DNA from: a virus
Length of the DNA: 43,452 bases
IMG/VR virus record: IMGVR_UViG_3300048582_000018
Coordinates: 1 to 43,452 of that record
Reading direction: 5' to 3' (one strand)
The number at the start of each line of letters is the position of its first letter. The first letter of the stretch is position 1. The translations under genes and the position numbers were made by a program. Shown in pieces: positions 1 to 43,452 of the stretch. The notes below the pieces were generated by a model. It was given only the letters and a program-made list of their open reading frames with translations, had not been told where the DNA came from and made no database searches.

Positions 1-1338
1 CTCGTCGATAGTGCCCTGCGCCACGAGGTTGTGGACGAACGTCGGCCGGTTCATGCCGGCTTGGTATTGCCGGGTGGGGCCGATGCGTTCGATGATCTGT
101 TCACGTTCCTCCAGGTTGTAGTCGAGCCCGAAGAACACAATGATGTTGCACACAAGCTGTAGGCCGTCGATACCGTGGCCGATGCTCGCCGGGTGGCCGA
201 TACCGACAGCCGCCTTGCCCGCTTTGAACTGAGCCAGTCCGGCAGTAGTGGCCAGGTCGACCGAGCCCTTGAAGTGTTTGAGCAAGCGCTCGCGGTCAGC
301 GACGAACTTGTACGCCACCATCACCGGAGCACCCATCGCCTCCTCGACAATGGACTCCAGCGCTTCGATCTTGGCGTCGTGCACGTTTGCCCATGTGCCT
401 TTATCGTCGAGCAGTAACGTACCGGAGGCGAGCTGCAGACACTTGATCGTGCGACTGGCCGCGTTGAACGCCTCGACACCGACGCGCTGAATCTCCAGAA
501 ACATCTCGCGCTCCATCTCCTTGTACTGGCGCATGGCTTTCTCCGGCAGCTTGACCGGCACGTTATTGACCACGCACTCGCTCAGGTCGAAGTAGTCCTT
601 GGCCTGGATGCTCAGGCACACGTCGCTGATCAGCCCGGTGATCTCGTCGAAGGCGTGCGGCAGCGGCTCGATGCTGAACCCGTCGTAACCCTTGCGGAAC
701 CACCGCTGCTCGAATGCGGAATGAATGCGCCCGAGGCGCTTGCCGGCGTCTATGAAAAATAGCTGGCCCCAAATATCACGGACGCCGTTCGGTGCCGGGG
801 TGCCGGTCAGCTCGATAAACCTGCGCACATGCTTGTGCGACACCTTGGCCAGTGCGCTGGTGCGCGATCCGCCACCCTTGCGGATGAACTCGACGCCTGT
901 CTTGCTGACCTGCTGGCTACCTCTGAACCCTTTGAGCTTGGTCGCCTCGTCCGCGATCACAGTGTCGAACGGCCAGTCGTCGCCGTACTGCTCAACCAAC
1001 CACGGCAGATTTTCGTAGTTGGTGACGGTGATAGGCGCACGCTCGCGCAGGGCAGCACGACGCTGCTCCGGTGTGCCAATAGCGCGGGCGATGCGCAGGT
1101 GCTGGGTGTGCTCCCACTTGACCGCCTCGTCGGTCCACACATCGCGCGCCACCCGCAGCGGGCCGAGGCACAGGATGCGCTTGGACTCACCGGCGAGCAT
1201 CAGGATGTCGGAGGCGGTCAACGCTACCGAGGTCTTGCCGGTGCCGGTGCCGGCGTGCAGTGCGCAGCGCGGTGTGTCGAGCACGAAGTCGATGGCCGGC
1301 TGTTGGTACGCGCGGGGGGTGAAGGGTTTAGGGCTCAA
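1..1338 (-). CDS. SNF2/DEAD-box helicase, N-terminal 446 codons (continues across the junction)
   Basis: Superfamily 2 ATP-dependent DNA helicase or translocase of the phage SNF2 type, probably acting in replication or recombination. The minus-strand frame is open from 1338 to base 1 and continues at 43438-43367, giving 469 residues. Visible motifs are Walker A AGTGTGKT (about residue 30), DEAT (VIADEATKLKGF, about 127), ELTGTPAPN (motif III), GHPASIGHGIDGLQ (motif V) and EREQIIERIGPTRQ (motif VI). I chose TTG at 1338: an in-frame TGA lies two codons upstream, GAGG sits 9 bases before it, and the conserved PFTPRAYQQ begins at once. The next in-frame ATG comes after Walker A. It follows the 55-aa zinc-ribbon gene by 11 bases. 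Family assignment is firm; the exact start is inferred. Confidence 0.93.
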   Translation of the reverse strand, partial: MSPKPFTPRAYQQPAIDFVLDTPRCALHAGTGTGKTSVALTASDILMLAGESKRILCLGPLRVARDVWTDEAVKWEHTQHLRIARAIGTPEQRRAALRERAPITVTNYENLPWLVEQYGDDWPFDTVIADEATKLKGFRGSQQVSKTGVEFIRKGGGSRTSALAKVSHKHVRRFIELTGTPAPNGVRDIWGQLFFIDAGKRLGRIHSAFEQRWFRKGYDGFSIEPLPHAFDEITGLISDVCLSIQAKDYFDLSECVVNNVPVKLPEKAMRQYKEMEREMFLEIQRVGVEAFNAASRTIKCLQLASGTLLLDDKGTWANVHDAKIEALESIVEEAMGAPVMVAYKFVADRERLLKHFKGSVDLATTAGLAQFKAGKAAVGIGHPASIGHGIDGLQLVCNIIVFFGLDYNLEEREQIIERIGPTRQYQAGMNRPTFVHNLVAQGTIDE

Positions 1339-5982: not shown

Positions 5983-6687
5983 TCAAAGACTACAAACCCG
6001 GCAGGTGGTCGCTCGTTTGTATTCGCGCAGCTTCCGACCGGAGTCGAACTCCTGCGCCAGTGAGCGGAGGTCCGCCGGCCATGTATCGCGCCCAGGGCTG
6101 CGGAAGGTGGCGCCGAGTTCATCCTCCATCTGGACGGCCTCGATGTACTTCTCGCGGTTGTTCTGCCACAAGTCGCGCCACTCGCCGAGGCGCTGATAAG
6201 GACACTTGGCGCAATCGGTGCGCTGCGGTATGCAGACGCCACGGTCGTCGAGCGCCTTCCACACCGCCGCCTCGTCCATACCCCACTCGCGCAGCGGGAA
6301 ACGGATAAGCATGTCCTCCCCGTAAATTCCGCGTCGTATCTCCTCGTCGGCACGAAGACCGACGTACAGCGTTGAGCCGTCCGGCAAGCTGTCCATGTAG
6401 CGGATGGTCGGCTCGATCTTGAGGATGCGAGTACACCAACGGGCGAACACGCTGGGTAGCATGTTTTGCTTGCGGATTTCCTCGTCCAGGTTGCGCTCGT
6501 GGCGCACCCGGATGATCTCGGTCTTGAGCAAATCCTCCAGGCGCTTCCAATGGTCGACCATCTCCGGCAGCTCGTCGCCGGTCTCGTTACAGATGAACTC
6601 GTACTGGCGCGGCTCACGTTCAACCAGCAGCAAGGCGAGCGCCGTCGAGTCCTTGCCACCACTGAGACCAACGACATGCCTACTCAC
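5983..6687 (-). CDS. Phosphoadenosine phosphosulfate (PAPS) reductase family protein
   Basis: N-type ATP pyrophosphatase fold enzyme, 234 residues. The PP-loop GLSGGKDSTALALLL lies at residues 8-22, NETGDELPE follows at about 36, WCTRILK at about 84, and a Cys set TDCAKCPYQR occurs at about 160, ending in CRVC. The family covers sulfate assimilation, tRNA and nucleobase thiolation and DndC-type DNA phosphorothioation. A phage copy among replication genes is more easily read as DNA or nucleotide modification than sulfur assimilation, but that is inference. The GTG start overlaps the DUF2800 stop by GTGA. No DndD/E-like partner is present in the genome. Confidence 0.88.
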   Translation of the reverse strand: MSRHVVGLSGGKDSTALALLLVEREPRQYEFICNETGDELPEMVDHWKRLEDLLKTEIIRVRHERNLDEEIRKQNMLPSVFARWCTRILKIEPTIRYMDSLPDGSTLYVGLRADEEIRRGIYGEDMLIRFPLREWGMDEAAVWKALDDRGVCIPQRTDCAKCPYQRLGEWRDLWQNNREKYIEAVQMEDELGATFRSPGRDTWPADLRSLAQEFDSGRKLREYKRATTCRVCSL

Positions 6688-9829: not shown

Positions 9830-10015
9830 ATGCAGCCGCAAGACCCTAACTACAAACCCAAGACCACAATTATCCCTGCTAATCCCGACCTGTTCCTCAA
9901 CGCCATGCTCGTCGTAGCGTGGGTCATCGAGGACGGCAAGGTGGCCAAGGCCATCACCGCCCCGGAGCGTGTCGTGTATGCGCCTTTGCGCTTGGCAGGG
10001 AGCAAAGATGAATGA
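9830..10015 (+). CDS. 61-aa uncharacterised protein coupled to the primase
   Basis: MQPQDPNYKPKTTIIPANPDLFLNAMLVVAWVIEDGKVAKAITAPERVVYAPL... has a GAGG before its ATG and ends in the ATGA overlap with the primase start. The middle (VVAWVIEDGKVAKAITAPERVV) looks like a small folded strand-turn-strand unit, not a membrane segment. No family is recognised. Position suggests early expression with the primase. Confidence 0.72.
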   Translation: MQPQDPNYKPKTTIIPANPDLFLNAMLVVAWVIEDGKVAKAITAPERVVYAPLRLAGSKDE

Positions 10016-12252
10016 ACAGTGCAGTGACTATCTACGGCGCTCTCCCCGCCGAGTGGGATGCCTTTGTCAAAGCCGGGCTGATGCCCGACATGCTGCCCTA
10101 TGTGGCCGACCCCGGTGTTCAAGCGCAGCCTGAGAACCCAAACGAGCAAACCAAGCGGAGCTGGCGCCCAGGCACGAAGATGCCGGGGGTGGTTGATCCG
10201 AACGGCTTTGGCCGTGGGCTGCGCAAGTGGAACGAACACATCACGACTGAGCGCGACATACGCCGCTGGCGCGACGACGCAAGGCTTGGCTTCTGTGTCG
10301 TCACTCGCCGGCTGCGAGCTATCGATGTGGACGTGGAGGACGCGGCCGAGGCGCACGCTATCGAGTCGTTGATCGTCGAGCACCTGGGTCTGCACCCTAC
10401 TCGCCGGCGCTCGAACAGCAGCAAGTTCGCGGTGGCGGTCATCGTCGAGGGTGAGCTTGGCAAGACGGTGGTCCAAACCAAGTCCGGTGGGGCTGTCGAG
10501 TTCCTCGGCAACAAGCAGCAGTTCTTTGCCGTGGGGATGCACAAGTCCGGTGTGCGCTACACATGGGACGGCGGTGTGCCGGACCAGTTCGACGTGGTCA
10601 CCCTGGCCGACTACAACAACCTTATCGACGTGATCGCTGCGCAGTACGGCACCGAGATCAGCCGCGAGCGCCTGAGCGTCGGGACGGTTGAGCGCACCGC
10701 CTTGGACATCGACGACAACATGGTCGAGTTCATGCAGGAGCAGGACATCGTCAAGCACATCGGCAACGACGGTAAGGTGTTCATCCGCTGCCCGTTCGAG
10801 GACCAGCACACCTCACCCGATGCCGATCACACCGCCACCGTGTACTTCCCCGCTGGCGTGGGTGGCTACACCGAGGGGAACTTCCGGTGCCAGCACGCGC
10901 ACTGCGCGATGCGCACCAAGTCGGAGTTTGAGCAGGCGATAGGCTATTACCGTGAGCAGTTTGCGGTGGTTGAGGTAAGCCCGGAGGAGGAAGCGCGCGA
11001 GGCTGCTGTCCCTGACTTCGACCGCAACGCGCAGACCGGCAAGATACTCACGAACCCGAGCAACGTCATGCGCGCGCTGCGCTGCCCGGAGTGGTTGGGC
11101 GTTGACGTGGCTTATGACGACTTCCTCGGCGAGCTGGTCATAAGCCCCCACGGTCGGCGCGAGTGGCGCCCGTTTCGGGATGCCGACTACATGCGCCTAC
11201 GCCTGCGGATGGAAGCGCAAGGGCTGGCCGTAGGCTCGGAGTTGATCAAGGAGGCTGTAGGCTTGCGCGCCGATGACAACCACACCGACAGCGCAAAGCT
11301 GTGGCTCAAGCACGAAGTGCCGGAGTGGGATGGTGTGCCGCGTATTGACTCGTTTTATCCGCGCGCCTTTGGTACTGACGACACACCGTACACCCGCGCG
11401 GTCGGTGCCTACACCTGGACCGCACTGGCGGCGCGTGTGCTCGACCCCGGTCATAAAGTCGACATGGCGCCGATCCTGTCCTCCGGTGAGGGGTGCCGGA
11501 AGTCGGAGAGTATCGCGGCGATGGTGCCGGACCGTGAGTTCTTTGTCGAACTCGACCTTGGCGACAACGACAAGGAGCTGGTGAGGCTGATGCGCGGAAA
11601 GCTGATCTCGGAACTGGGTGAGATGAAAGGTCTGAACAAGCGCCAGGCCGGTGAGACCAAGGCGTTTATCACTCGCCGGGTGGATGAGTGGCGCCCTGTC
11701 TATAAGGAGTTCGCCATCAAGGCGCCGCGCCGGTTGCTGTTTATCGGCACCACCAACGAGCTGGAGATGCTTTCGGACAACACCGGCCGGCGCCGGTGGC
11801 TGCCGATGGTCATCACTCGGGCCGACACCGATCTGATCGAGAGCGAACGCCTGCAGTTATGGGCCGAGGGTGTTGCGCGGTTCAAAACCAACGGGCGGGT
11901 CGAGTTCGAGGCGGCCGAGGAGTTGGCAAAACAGGAGCACGGCAAGTTCGAGGAGACGCATGTGTGGGACGAACTTATCGGTGGTTGGCTGGATCAGCCT
12001 GCCGATTTTGATGAGGAATTTCGCAACCAAGACAAGCCATTTACGACCGCCCAAATACTCATCAAGGCGCTCGGTTTACCTGCCTCAGAGGTTGCGAGGA
12101 AGTCTCACAGTAATGCGGTTGCCTCAGTACTAAAACGCCTCGGATATGAGTCAGTGCAGATTAGGATGGATGGGCACAAGCCAAGGGTTTGGCGAAAAAC
12201 TGCGAACTCGTTAAAAACTGCAAGTTCGGAAGTGAGGCAAAGGGGTATGTGA
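10012..12252 (+). CDS. PrimPol-VapE primase-helicase
   Basis: A 746-residue replication initiator. Residues about 1-210 form an archaeo-eukaryotic type primase/polymerase domain, with the acidic metal site AIDVDVED (about 103-109), RRRSNSSKF and VEFLGNKQQFFAVGMHKSG. A Cys/His zinc unit follows (IRCPFEDQHT...FRCQHAHC, about 259-299). The C-terminal half is a VirE/VapE P-loop ATPase: PEWDGVPRIDSFYP, then LSSGEGCRKSESI (about 487-499) in which the Gly before the P-loop Lys is Arg, KLISELGEMKGLNK, and LLFIGTTNELEMLSDNTGRRRWLPM. Start ATG overlaps the previous gene by ATGA. The iteron-like repeats and hairpin directly behind it suggest it acts at its own origin. Confidence 0.93.
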   Translation: MNSAVTIYGALPAEWDAFVKAGLMPDMLPYVADPGVQAQPENPNEQTKRSWRPGTKMPGVVDPNGFGRGLRKWNEHITTERDIRRWRDDARLGFCVVTRRLRAIDVDVEDAAEAHAIESLIVEHLGLHPTRRRSNSSKFAVAVIVEGELGKTVVQTKSGGAVEFLGNKQQFFAVGMHKSGVRYTWDGGVPDQFDVVTLADYNNLIDVIAAQYGTEISRERLSVGTVERTALDIDDNMVEFMQEQDIVKHIGNDGKVFIRCPFEDQHTSPDADHTATVYFPAGVGGYTEGNFRCQHAHCAMRTKSEFEQAIGYYREQFAVVEVSPEEEAREAAVPDFDRNAQTGKILTNPSNVMRALRCPEWLGVDVAYDDFLGELVISPHGRREWRPFRDADYMRLRLRMEAQGLAVGSELIKEAVGLRADDNHTDSAKLWLKHEVPEWDGVPRIDSFYPRAFGTDDTPYTRAVGAYTWTALAARVLDPGHKVDMAPILSSGEGCRKSESIAAMVPDREFFVELDLGDNDKELVRLMRGKLISELGEMKGLNKRQAGETKAFITRRVDEWRPVYKEFAIKAPRRLLFIGTTNELEMLSDNTGRRRWLPMVITRADTDLIESERLQLWAEGVARFKTNGRVEFEAAEELAKQEHGKFEETHVWDELIGGWLDQPADFDEEFRNQDKPFTTAQILIKALGLPASEVARKSHSNAVASVLKRLGYESVQIRMDGHKPRVWRKTANSLKTASSEVRQRGM
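12195..12221. repeat. Two direct repeats AAAAACTGC in the 3' end of the primase gene
   Basis: AAAAACTGC occurs at 12195-12203 and 12213-12221, 18 bases apart, with CGAACT and AGTTCG as inverted halves between and after them. They form the left edge of a repeat-rich stretch that leads into the iteron-like set. This may be part of the origin, or chance in lysine/threonine codons. Confidence 0.5.
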
Positions 12253-12279
12253 GGCGCATGTGAGCCGGATGCGAGGCGT
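12247..12279 (+). repeat. Three tandem 11-bp iteron-like repeats
   Basis: ATGTGAGGCGC, ATGTGAGCCGG and ATGCGAGGCGT follow each other without gaps at 12247, 12258 and 12269. A related AAGTGAGGCAA lies at 12230. The 11-bp period is one helical turn, as expected for initiator-binding iterons. The array begins at the primase stop codon. Confidence 0.68.
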
Positions 12280-12309
12280 CGCGCAGCCCAATAACTGCGC
12301 GGTGTCCCG

Positions 12310-12443
12310 CTCGCGTCTCTTATGTCTCATATCTTTTACAAACATATGTATATATATAAAAAGAGCCCTCCCGCCCGGCTCGGGGCACCCTCCGGGGAGG
12401 CTGGGGGTAAGTTTCAAAATAGTTGTGAGACATGAGACGCGAG
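12310..12443. other. Long inverted repeat around AT-rich and GC-rich tracts; candidate origin of replication
   Basis: The arms CTCGCGTCTC + ATGTCTCA (12310-12329, with a 2-base TT bulge) and TGAGACATGAGACGCGAG (12426-12443) pair over 18 bp. The 96-base loop holds a TA-rich tract (CATATGTATATATATAAAAA, 12343-12362) beside a GC-rich hairpin-prone stretch (12363-12410). No ORF with coding character crosses it. Iterons, an easily melted tract and a primase-helicase gene next door are the usual parts of an origin. A structured RNA is the alternative. The 12253-12506 interval holds no gene that I can support. Confidence 0.6.
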
Positions 12444-12506
12444 GCAAACGCAGGGATTTTTGAGGCTGTTCGGCTACCGCCACACCGGCACTTTGGGAGG
12501 AACAAA

Positions 12507-12749
12507 ATGGGACATCGCTATGTGGGTATCGGGGAGTCGGGCAGTCGTTGCGGAGAGACTCACCACCGCGCTCGGTTGACCGACCGCGACGTTGATCTGA
12601 TCCGTGAGCTGCACGAGGAACACGGACTCAGCTACGGCGTCCTGGCGGGCAAGTTCGAGGTAAGCAAGTCGGTCATCAGGGACATCTGCCGCTACCGGCG
12701 CAGGACCGAGCGGCCGATCCGGTGGAAAAAGGTGTTGACCACAGATTGA
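12507..12749 (+). CDS. 80-aa HTH protein, possible late-gene regulator
   Basis: From the ATG at 12507 (GGGAGG 6 bases upstream) the protein is MGHRYVGIGESGSRCGETHHRARLTDRDVDLIRELHEEHGLSYGVL..., with a helix-turn-helix RLTDRDVDLIRELHEEHGLSYGVLAGKFEVSKSVIRDICRYRRR (about residues 23-67) and a basic tail. It resembles small phage resolvase-type or Gp-like DNA-binding proteins that precede terminase. It is the first gene after the candidate origin and before packaging genes, a good place for a late activator, though that is inference. Confidence 0.82.
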   Translation: MGHRYVGIGESGSRCGETHHRARLTDRDVDLIRELHEEHGLSYGVLAGKFEVSKSVIRDICRYRRRTERPIRWKKVLTTD

Positions 12750-12785
12750 GCAATCACTCAAACCATTGAGCAAGGAGTCATCAGC

Positions 12786-12932
12786 ATGACCATCGAGCAA
12801 CTGCGCGAACTGTCGCGCACCATGAAGGACTACAGCGACCAGGTGGGCGACCCGCATTGGCTGGCGCACAAGGCTATCGAGGAACTGATCGCTCTGCGCC
12901 TGAGTGCGCAAACACCTCTACCCATCGCCTAG
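12786..12932 (+). CDS. 48-aa uncharacterised protein before terminase
   Basis: MTIEQLRELSRTMKDYSDQVGDPHWLAHKAIEELIALRLS... is a helical, amphipathic peptide with AAGGAG 6-7 bases upstream of the ATG. It ends 9 bases before the small terminase start. The leader just before it contains TTGAGCAAT/ATTGAGCAA repeats (12755-12783). No family is recognised. Confidence 0.7.
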   Translation: MTIEQLRELSRTMKDYSDQVGDPHWLAHKAIEELIALRLSAQTPLPIA

Positions 12933-25787: not shown

Positions 25788-27923
25788 ATGGCACGAGTAC
25801 CCCAGTACGAACAGCAGCAACAGCTCCGCGCCCTCCCCGGCGTGCGGCAGAACATCGCCACACCGGCCGCCGCGTTCGGTGACGGTGGCGCGTTCGCGCA
25901 GAACATCGGGCAAGGGCTCGAGCAGGGCGCTGAGATCATGGCGCGCGAGCAGTTGCTGGCCGATGAGGTCCGCGTCGACGAGCAGTTAAACAAGTGGAAA
26001 GAGTACCAACTCGACCTGACGTTCAACCCGGAGAGCGGTTACACCACGCAGAAGGGCGCGCAGGCGATGTACCGCCCGAGCGGCAAGCCGCTGGCGGATG
26101 AGTACTACGAGAACGCCGATAAGTATTCGAGTGACCTGGAGAACAGCCTCGGCACCGACCGGCAGAAAGCAATGTTCCGGCAGAAAGTGACGCAGCAGCT
26201 CACCGGCTTTAAGGGTGACTTGATGCGCTACGAGGGGCAGGAGTTCCGTAGCTACCAGGTCAGTGTGCAGGAGGGCAAGATCGCCACCGAAGCGCGCACC
26301 GTGGCCAGCTACTACAACAACCCGGACAAGGTTAACGAGTCCATCGCCGAGATCAAGAAGTCGGTGTACCTGCAGGGTCGGCTCGAAGGTAAGAGCGCCG
26401 AGGAGATCGCCGCGCGCACTGACGCGATGGTCAGCGCAGCGCACGCTGGCGCACTCGATCAGGCGCTCGGCAACGGCAGCCCGCTGTACGCCGATCAGTA
26501 CCTCAAGACGTACAAGGACCAGATGACCCCGCAGGACTTGCTCAAGGCTCGCTCCAAGATCGGCGAGCAGGTCGAGACTGTGGTCGCTACCAAGACCGCC
26601 GACCTCATGTTCGGCAAAGTCGTGTCGGCTGAGAACCCGACCGACATGGACCGCGTCATCAACATCACCATGCAGAGCGAAAGCAACGGCCGGCGATACG
26701 GTCCGGGTGGGCAGATTCTCACCAGCAAAGCCGGCGCCAAGGGCGAGATGCAGGTGATGGACCCAACCAACGGCGACCCGGGCTTCGGCGTCACACCGGC
26801 GCGCGATGACTCACCCGATGAGCGTGCGCGCGTTGGGCGCGACTACATGGGCGCGATGGTCAAGAAGTACGAGGGCGACCTCGGCCGCGCATGGGCCGCG
26901 TACAACGCAGGTCCGGGCGCTGTCGACAAGGCTATGGATGAGGCGCGTGCTGAGGGTAGCCCCGGTGCATGGCTGTCGAAACTGCCCAAGGAGACACAGG
27001 ACTATGTGCGCAAGAACGCGACGGCATACGGCTCGGGTCAGGGTAAGCCGAAAGCGCCAACAGTGGATGAGCTTAAAGCCGAGTTGCGCCAGCGTCCGGA
27101 GTTCGCGGAGCGCCCGAATGCACTGCGCAAGGCTGAGGATGAGATCGACCGCCGTTTCGCGGATTACGAGAAGGGTCGCAAAGCGCGCCAAGAAGGCGCT
27201 TACGACGAGGCGATCCGCATGATCGACCAAGGTGGCAGCTTCGAGTCGCTGCCGCCCGCGATGAAGCGCGACATGGACGCCGGTAAGTTCACCAGCCTGC
27301 GCGAGTACGAGAAGAAAGTCCGCTCCGGCACACCGGTGGAGACCGACCTCAGTACCTACCAATTGCTGGCCACCAACCCGCAGCGCGTGCGTGACATGAG
27401 CGACGCGGAGTTCAACGCGCTAAAGACCTCACTCTCCTCCGGCGACTTTAAGAAGTTCTCCGACATGCGCGCCGACAAGGTCAACGCCAAGGACAACCCG
27501 CAGGGTGTGGACTTCGAGGCGGTCAACCAAGTGCTCACACCGCGACTGCGCGGTATGGGTATCCCGCAGAGCGGCGTCAACACCATCGACGCGCAGCGCT
27601 CGGCCGCGATCCGGCAGCACATTGCCGACGTGGTGCTCCAGCGCCAGCAGCAGCTTGGTCGCAAGCTCACCGACGCGGAACTGATCAAGACCGTCGACGA
27701 GCGCTTCCTGGCGATGCGCACGTCCGAGACTTCGGCATTTGGTCAACTGTTCGGTGGCGACAAGGTGCGCAAACAAAACGTCCTGCGGTCTAAGGTTGGC
27801 GACATCCCCGGCGACGTGCGCAAACGTATCGAGCGAGACCTCAACGATCAGGGCATCGACAGCCCGACCGATCAGGATTTGCTCACCGCGTACTTCGGAC
27901 TGGACTACCAGATACCTCAATGA
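25788..27923 (+). CDS. Internal virion protein with lytic transglycosylase domain (gp15/gp16-like)
   Basis: A 711-residue internal virion protein. N-terminus: VPQYEQQQQLRALPGVRQNIATPAAAFGDGGAF. An SLT-type lytic transglycosylase domain lies at about 285-385: NITMQSESNGRRYGPGGQILTSKAGAKGEMQVMDPTNGDPGFGV, with the catalytic Glu in SESNG, then MGAMVKKYEGDLGRAWAAYNAGPGAVDKA. The remaining parts are helical. The protein should travel with the DNA and locally open peptidoglycan on infection. The stop lies 9 bases before the giant gene. Confidence 0.92.
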   Translation: MARVPQYEQQQQLRALPGVRQNIATPAAAFGDGGAFAQNIGQGLEQGAEIMAREQLLADEVRVDEQLNKWKEYQLDLTFNPESGYTTQKGAQAMYRPSGKPLADEYYENADKYSSDLENSLGTDRQKAMFRQKVTQQLTGFKGDLMRYEGQEFRSYQVSVQEGKIATEARTVASYYNNPDKVNESIAEIKKSVYLQGRLEGKSAEEIAARTDAMVSAAHAGALDQALGNGSPLYADQYLKTYKDQMTPQDLLKARSKIGEQVETVVATKTADLMFGKVVSAENPTDMDRVINITMQSESNGRRYGPGGQILTSKAGAKGEMQVMDPTNGDPGFGVTPARDDSPDERARVGRDYMGAMVKKYEGDLGRAWAAYNAGPGAVDKAMDEARAEGSPGAWLSKLPKETQDYVRKNATAYGSGQGKPKAPTVDELKAELRQRPEFAERPNALRKAEDEIDRRFADYEKGRKARQEGAYDEAIRMIDQGGSFESLPPAMKRDMDAGKFTSLREYEKKVRSGTPVETDLSTYQLLATNPQRVRDMSDAEFNALKTSLSSGDFKKFSDMRADKVNAKDNPQGVDFEAVNQVLTPRLRGMGIPQSGVNTIDAQRSAAIRQHIADVVLQRQQQLGRKLTDAELIKTVDERFLAMRTSETSAFGQLFGGDKVRKQNVLRSKVGDIPGDVRKRIERDLNDQGIDSPTDQDLLTAYFGLDYQIPQ

Positions 27924-43438: not shown

Positions 43439-43452
43439 CTCGTCGATAGTGC
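43439..43452. repeat. 14-base terminal overlap with positions 1-14
   Basis: CTCGTCGATAGTGC occurs at both ends of the window. It shows that the ends join: the same bases are part of a single helicase reading frame. The likely cause is assembly of a circular or circularly permuted molecule. It could in principle be a genuine short direct terminal repeat, but its position inside a gene argues against that. Confidence 0.85.

What the first reader, a model, noticed from the sequence alone, without database searches (positions are those of the whole stretch)
12190..12443. Candidate replication origin directly behind the PrimPol-VapE gene
Three uninterrupted 11-bp repeats (12247-12279) begin at the primase stop. 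Two AAAAACTGC direct repeats precede them. An inverted repeat pairing over 18 bp (12310-12329 with 12426-12443) encloses a TA-rich tract (12343-12362) and a GC-rich hairpin-prone tract. Iterons, a melting tract and an initiator gene next door are the standard parts of an origin (established for many plasmids and satellites). I know of no described origin for BPP-1-like phages of this type. The 250-base interval has no convincing gene.
Basis: partly seen in the sequence, partly recalled or inferred. Interest (0 to 1): 0.78.

Follow-up and report, generated by a model that had tools for sequence, protein, structure and literature searches.

The report
Phage replication origin behind primase-helicase gene
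The stretch directly behind this phage's primase-helicase gene is very probably its DNA replication origin: two sets of short repeats face each other across the most easily melted DNA of the genome, a layout so far described mainly for phage-satellite islands and found here behind the same gene in dozens of phage loci, and in the model phage BPP-1.

Summary
The repeats are real and sit where stated. The core is two opposed arrays of a short iteron (GTCTC at 12315 and 12324; GAGAC-type at 12425, 12432, 12439) flanking the lowest-GC stretch of the record. The 11-bp triple repeat (12247-12279) is an accessory array of the same iteron. In the window alone the geometry is modest evidence (3 of 2000 shuffles). 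Relatives decide it: behind the PrimPol-VapE gene, 47 of 56 distinct loci carry opposed arrays, against 0.3% of shuffles and 1.4% of control windows. Iteron sequence changes between phages, tracking the VapE C-terminal winged-helix domain more than its helicase core. The annotated origin of Streptococcus phage Sfi21 has the same anatomy. BPP-1 has it at 26607-26711, away from the stem-loop proposed in the literature; a sister phage keeps the arrays but not the sequence at that stem-loop. Best reading: a PICI/SaPI-type origin in a complete temperate phage, bound by the VapE C-terminus, which loads helicases that melt the AT tract. Binding and origin activity are inferred, not shown. New member of a known kind, but it contradicts the published statement that this layout is confined to PICIs.

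The parts
10012..12252 (+). PrimPol-VapE primase-helicase gene, inferred initiator
   Evidence: Pfam VapE-like_dom 2.4e-55 and Prim-Pol 1.6e-5; VapE core matches PDB 7pds 6.6e-45
11962..12198 (+). Codons of the C-terminal winged-helix domain (aa 651-729), inferred iteron-binding domain
   Evidence: AlphaFold2 blocks pLDDT 94-97 with H-E-H-H-E-E order; covaries with iteron beyond the helicase core
12195..12228 (+). Direct 16-bp repeat AAAAACTGCGAACTCG / AAAAACTGCAAGTTCG, inside VapE coding sequence; role unknown
   Evidence: similar GCAAAAAATTGCAAGTT-like elements in L008, L011, L013, BPP-1
12231..12279 (+). Accessory iteron array (element B): cores at 12232, 12249, 12260, 12271; includes the reported 11-bp triple and the VapE stop codon
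   Evidence: L008 has the matching array at +7, +18, +30 from its VapE stop
12315..12330 (-). Left main iteron array (element C): GTCTCTT, GTCTCAT, 9-bp spacing
12331..12364 (.). AT-rich tract with TATATATATA, inferred melting site; lowest GC of the record
   Evidence: TATATATA in 16 of 55 relatives' regions against 0.2 expected
12366..12405 (.). GC-rich tract able to form small hairpins, between AT tract and right array; role unknown
12425..12445 (+). Right main iteron array (element D): GTGAGAC, ATGAGAC, GCGAGGC, 7-bp spacing, opposite orientation to C
12507..12749 (+). Small helix-turn-helix gene (BPP-1 bbp27 homologue) next to the origin; not required for the arrays
   Evidence: 24 array loci lack it

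Best explanation
12231-12445 is the phage's replication origin, of the type described for SaPI/PICI satellites. The winged-helix C-terminus of the PrimPol-VapE protein made from the adjoining gene binds the short iterons on both sides of the AT tract; because the arrays face each other, two helicase assemblies load in opposite orientation, melt the TATATA tract between them, and the fused primase domain primes synthesis on the opened strands, giving bidirectional theta replication. Shown here: the sequence anatomy, its conservation as a layout with changing iteron sequence, its independence of the neighbouring HTH gene, and covariation with the C-terminal domain. Inferred: binding, hexamer loading, melting, priming, bidirectionality.
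For: Opposed arrays at score 3.5 or more in 47 of 56 distinct VapE loci, 3 of 1120 shuffles, 1.4% of 641 control windows. L008-derived motif enriched in the window region, P 2e-7. Lowest GC of the record lies between the arrays; same in BPP-1, where the 60-bp GC minimum of the genome starts at 26624 between its arrays. The annotated origin of Streptococcus phage Sfi21, directly behind its SF3-type primase gene, holds the only detector hit in 10.7 kb: TTAGTTAC x2, AT tract, GTAACTAA x2. Iteron similarity tracks the C-terminal domain after removing the helicase core: partial r 0.35, 0 of 5000 permutations. Wing residue 725: Trp goes with GTTCC iterons, 7 of 10 against 0 of 33. C-terminal domain modelled as winged helix. 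Literature: PICI origins lie immediately 3' of rep with two iteron sets flanking an AT-rich region, and pri-rep-ori of EcCICFT073 drives plasmid maintenance (PMC6092414); [quoted passage not shown]
Against: No replication or binding test. In the window the iterons are degenerate and the exact-6-mer test fails. Nine of 56 relatives score below 3.5, some because of truncation or a longer spacer. No GC-skew switch at the site. Foldseek matches of the C-terminal model are winged-helix proteins but none is significant (best E 0.03). The covariation test does not correct for phylogeny beyond the helicase core, and the residue-725 association was noticed by eye before it was tested.
Confidence: 0.85

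Rival explanations
1. The inverted arrays act as one long stem-loop or cruciform that the replication protein recognises by structure, as proposed for plasmid pRN1 and phage BIP-1.
For: The single strand 12280-12470 folds far better than shuffles, z -4.8; pRN1 needs a 100-bp stem-loop downstream of its PrimPol-helicase gene, and the same authors proposed a stem-loop for BIP-1 (PMC4234260).
Against: In relatives the left and right arrays often differ in spacing (9,9 against 10,9) and copy number, so units are kept but not a continuous stem. In BPP-1-like phage vB_BbrP_003 the region next to the primase where the BIP-1 stem-loop was placed is replaced by unrelated sequence, while the arrays are 99.5% kept.
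Confidence: 0.06
2. The repeats are operators of the small HTH protein encoded at 12507-12749 and regulate the late genes, not replication.
For: The HTH gene lies next to array D in the window, BPP-1, Jess A and in 24 of 56 loci overall.
Against: 24 loci have the arrays without the HTH gene nearby, 23 with it; the layout around an AT minimum and the match to the Sfi21 origin are not explained; no promoter-like site in 12000-12800.
Confidence: 0.05
3. Transcription terminator or attenuator behind the primase gene.
For: Inverted repeats near the stop codon in several relatives; one weak terminator-like match at 12297-12316.
Against: Terminator matches are about what shuffles give (1 against 0.7); direct-repeat arrays with 9-bp spacing on each side of a 30-130 bp spacer do not make a terminator.
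Confidence: 0.03

Closest known systems
SaPI / PICI replication origins (e.g. EcCICFT073, SaPIbov1)
   Same: Directly 3' of the initiator-helicase gene; [quoted passage not shown] iteron sequence differs between elements (PMC6092414, PMC7581432)
   Different: Here in complete temperate phages with their own terminase, portal and tail genes, with PrimPol and VapE fused; extra accessory iterons around the initiator's stop codon
Streptococcus phage Sfi21 annotated origin (302-bp non-coding region, phage inhibitory sequence)
   Same: Behind the SF3/Pox_D5-type primase gene; opposed TTAGTTAC/GTAACTAA repeats around an AT tract
   Different: Separate PrimPol and helicase genes; different helicase family (Pox_D5/DUF5906); unrelated iteron sequence
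pRN1 plasmid and BIP-1 stem-loop origins
   Same: Origin just downstream of a PrimPol-helicase gene with winged-helix C-terminus
   Different: Described as a stem-loop without iterons; in BPP-1/BIP-1 the arrays found here are at 26607-26711, about 470 bp beyond the primase stop
Satellite phage P4 alpha protein and ori1/crr (own knowledge, plus PMC4234260)
   Same: Fused primase-helicase with C-terminal winged helix binding short repeats
   Different: TOPRIM primase; ori1 is not directly behind the alpha gene; not compared by sequence here

Membership tests
PICI/SaPI-type replication origin | Lies immediately 3' of the replication initiator gene | tested here: met
   Arrays span 12231-12445, VapE stop at 12252
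PICI/SaPI-type replication origin | Two sets of short iterons on either side of the melting region | tested here: met
   C and D arrays in opposite orientation, 3/2000 shuffles; 47/56 relatives
PICI/SaPI-type replication origin | AT-rich region between the iteron sets | tested here: met
   Lowest GC of the record
PICI/SaPI-type replication origin | Initiator is a VapE/Rep-type helicase | tested here: met
   VapE domain 2.4e-55; PDB 7pds 'Similar to D. nodosus vapE' 6.6e-45
PICI/SaPI-type replication origin | Initiator C-terminal domain recognises the iterons | tested here: inconclusive
   Winged-helix model and covariation, no binding data
PICI/SaPI-type replication origin | Initiator plus origin drive autonomous replication | not testable with these tools
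   needs a plasmid assay
Iteron plasmid origin (RepA/RepE type with DnaA boxes) | DnaA boxes next to the iterons | tested here: not met
   Only one TTWTNCACA match with 1 mismatch, at 12334, in the region; record-wide count equals chance (27 against 27.0)
Lambda-type origin | Iterons inside the initiator gene | tested here: not met
   Main arrays start 60 bases beyond the VapE stop; only accessory copies touch its end
pRN1-type stem-loop origin | Conserved continuous stem-loop downstream of the gene | tested here: inconclusive
   Fold z -4.8, but array spacing in relatives breaks a continuous stem

The most novel reading that the evidence does not exclude
PrimPol-VapE phages and PICI satellites share one modular initiation system in which a winged-helix C-terminus reads a fast-changing 9-bp iteron through its recognition helix and wing (residue 725 among others), so that origin specificity switches by domain and array replacement while geometry stays fixed; the BPP-1 origin is at 26607-26711, not at the published stem-loop.
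Probability: 0.5. Interest if true: 0.65.

Novelty: new member of a known kind. Interest (0 to 1): 0.5.

Why it matters
[quoted passage not shown] Finding it behind the initiator gene in dozens of distinct phage loci links satellites and full phages through one replication system, gives a directly testable origin for the model phage BPP-1, and supplies natural iteron/DNA-binding-domain pairs for working out a recognition code. A simple rule follows: look for opposed 9-bp repeats around an AT minimum behind a VapE or D5-type gene.

Tried and rejected
Close-relative search of viral contigs with the single protein found nothing; an alignment of five relatives found 80. Exact 6-mer test of opposed repeats: good for the family (44/56) but control windows reached 16% and the window failed it, so a geometry-aware detector with one mismatch was used instead. 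Rfam: no hit. tRNA: none. GC/TA skew: no switch at the site. DnaA boxes: at chance. First covariation run contained three loci with truncated protein ends and was repeated without them. Alignment of window and L008 origin in both orientations gives similar identity (57%), with an 18-base exact match AAATAGTTGTGAGACATG only in the inverted comparison; not pursued. Phages MW202640 and MW202722, related by terminase, whose primase/helicase is not annotated as VapE, show no arrays at score 4 or more in the stretch held. A paper on Francisella phage KIRK describes a lambda-like origin, not this type.

Full report
What is in the sequence. The window is a whole virus record of 43,452 bases of a temperate phage with BPP-1-like gene order: regulators at 9.0-9.8 kb, PrimPol-VapE 10012-12252, a small HTH gene 12507-12749, terminases, portal, tail genes, integrase at 41.7-42.7 kb. 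The 11-bp triple is unique in the record and absent from 2000 shuffles. The lowest-GC stretches of the record lie between the arms of the inverted repeat.

What the repeats are. Read with relatives in hand, the inverted repeat is two opposed arrays of a short unit: GTCTC at 12315 and 12324 on the left (9-bp spacing), GAGAC/GAGGC at 12425, 12432 and 12439 on the right. The 11-bp triple and a copy at 12232 are further copies of the same unit in the orientation of the right array. The 63%-identical relative L008 shows the unit more cleanly: GTGAGGC x2 and GTGAGTC just after its VapE stop, GCCTCAC and GTCTCAC on the left, GTGAGAC x2 and GTGAGGC on the right. A motif taken from L008 alone is enriched in the window interval with P = 2e-7.

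Conservation of layout, not of sequence. From 120 loci with a VapE homologue, 56 distinct at 85% identity were compared. A detector for two opposed arrays (at least two 7-mers each, up to one mismatch, 7-12 bp spacing, 30-130 bp spacer) scores 3.5 or more in 47 of 56 regions behind VapE, in 0.27% of 1120 shuffles and in 1.4% of 641 control windows of the same loci. The unit is often TGTNNCCNN repeated every 9 bp and reading into the spacer from both sides: TGTTACCAC, CGTAACCAC, TGTACCAAC, TGTTCCTAC, TGTCACCCA, GACAACCTA and others. TATATATA occurs in 16 of 55 regions against 0.2 expected. In 33 loci whose left array starts beyond +36, extra copies near the VapE stop are common, as in the window. 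Examples include named phages with complete genomes: Yersinia YeP5, Acidovorax ACF1, Caulobacter Jess A and Hamiltonella APSE-1.

Which protein reads it. The arrays occur with (23 loci) and without (24 loci) the neighbouring HTH gene, so that gene is not what they belong to. Similarity of arrays between loci tracks the VapE C-terminal domain (r 0.45) better than the helicase core (r 0.31); the partial correlation given the core is 0.35, not reached in 5000 permutations. The domain (aa 651-729) is modelled with high confidence as a winged helix. At aa 725, in the second wing strand, Trp goes with GTTCC iterons in 7 of 10 loci and 0 of 33 others (530 tests, phylogeny not fully corrected). The VapE core matches PDB 7pds.

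Positive control. In Streptococcus phage Sfi21 the record annotates an origin of replication of 302 bp directly behind the primase gene. The detector's only hit in the 10.7 kb taken lies inside it: TTAGTTAC x2 and GTAACTAA x2 around an AT tract. Its helicase is of the Pox_D5/DUF5906 type, so the layout is not limited to VapE.

BPP-1. The PrimPol-D5 phage BPP-1 has TTGCCTC at 26607 and 26616 and the inverted unit at 26695 and 26704; the 60-bp GC minimum of its genome starts at 26624 between them. Two other places in BPP-1 tie in detector score, but neither lies at the GC minimum or next to the replication gene. The arrays lie beyond a small gene, bbp28, that separates them from the primase. A literature proposal puts the origin of the near-identical BIP-1 at a stem-loop next to the primase end at 27,177 (PMC4234260). 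Phage vB_BbrP_003 keeps the primase (847 of 855 positions) and the arrays (99.5%), but the sequence between them, where that stem-loop lies, has no similarity left. This favours the arrays as the origin.

Known kind. [quoted passage not shown] pri-rep-ori plasmids replicate (PMC6092414). SaPI Rep recognises such iterons with its C-terminal domain, apparently as two hexamers (PMC7581432). The window fits every sequence feature of that description but sits in a full phage. I found no held paper that describes this for PrimPol-VapE phages; subscription papers are not in the library, so earlier notice cannot be excluded.

What is not shown. No binding, melting or replication has been tested. The window's own arrays are degenerate, and without relatives they would be only suggestive.

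Noticed in passing
window 1-14 and 43439-43452: The first and last 14 bases are identical (CTCGTCGATAGTGC), which suggests a circularly closed, complete genome.
   Followed up: no
L124 (BPP-1) 26607-26711: BPP-1 carries the same kind of opposed iteron arrays around its genome-wide 60-bp GC minimum, beyond the bbp28 gene; not annotated.
   Followed up: yes
window 12195-12228; L008, L011, L013, L124 near the VapE or primase end: A second element like GCAAAAAATTGCAAGTTC recurs near these origins, in L011 many times; function unknown.
   Followed up: partly
window 12416-12434 and L008 about 6278-6300: An 18-base exact match AAATAGTTGTGAGACATG between the right array of the window and the inverted left array of L008; the block may have been inverted between the two phages.
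   Followed up: no
window 12507-12749: Small HTH gene (annotated 'endonuclease' in BPP-1, bbp27) sits just behind the origin in about half of the loci; role unknown.
   Followed up: partly
L126 3738-4067 and L124 26809-27165: Different small genes occupy the same slot between primase and origin in two nearly identical Bordetella phages, a spot for accessory genes.
   Followed up: partly
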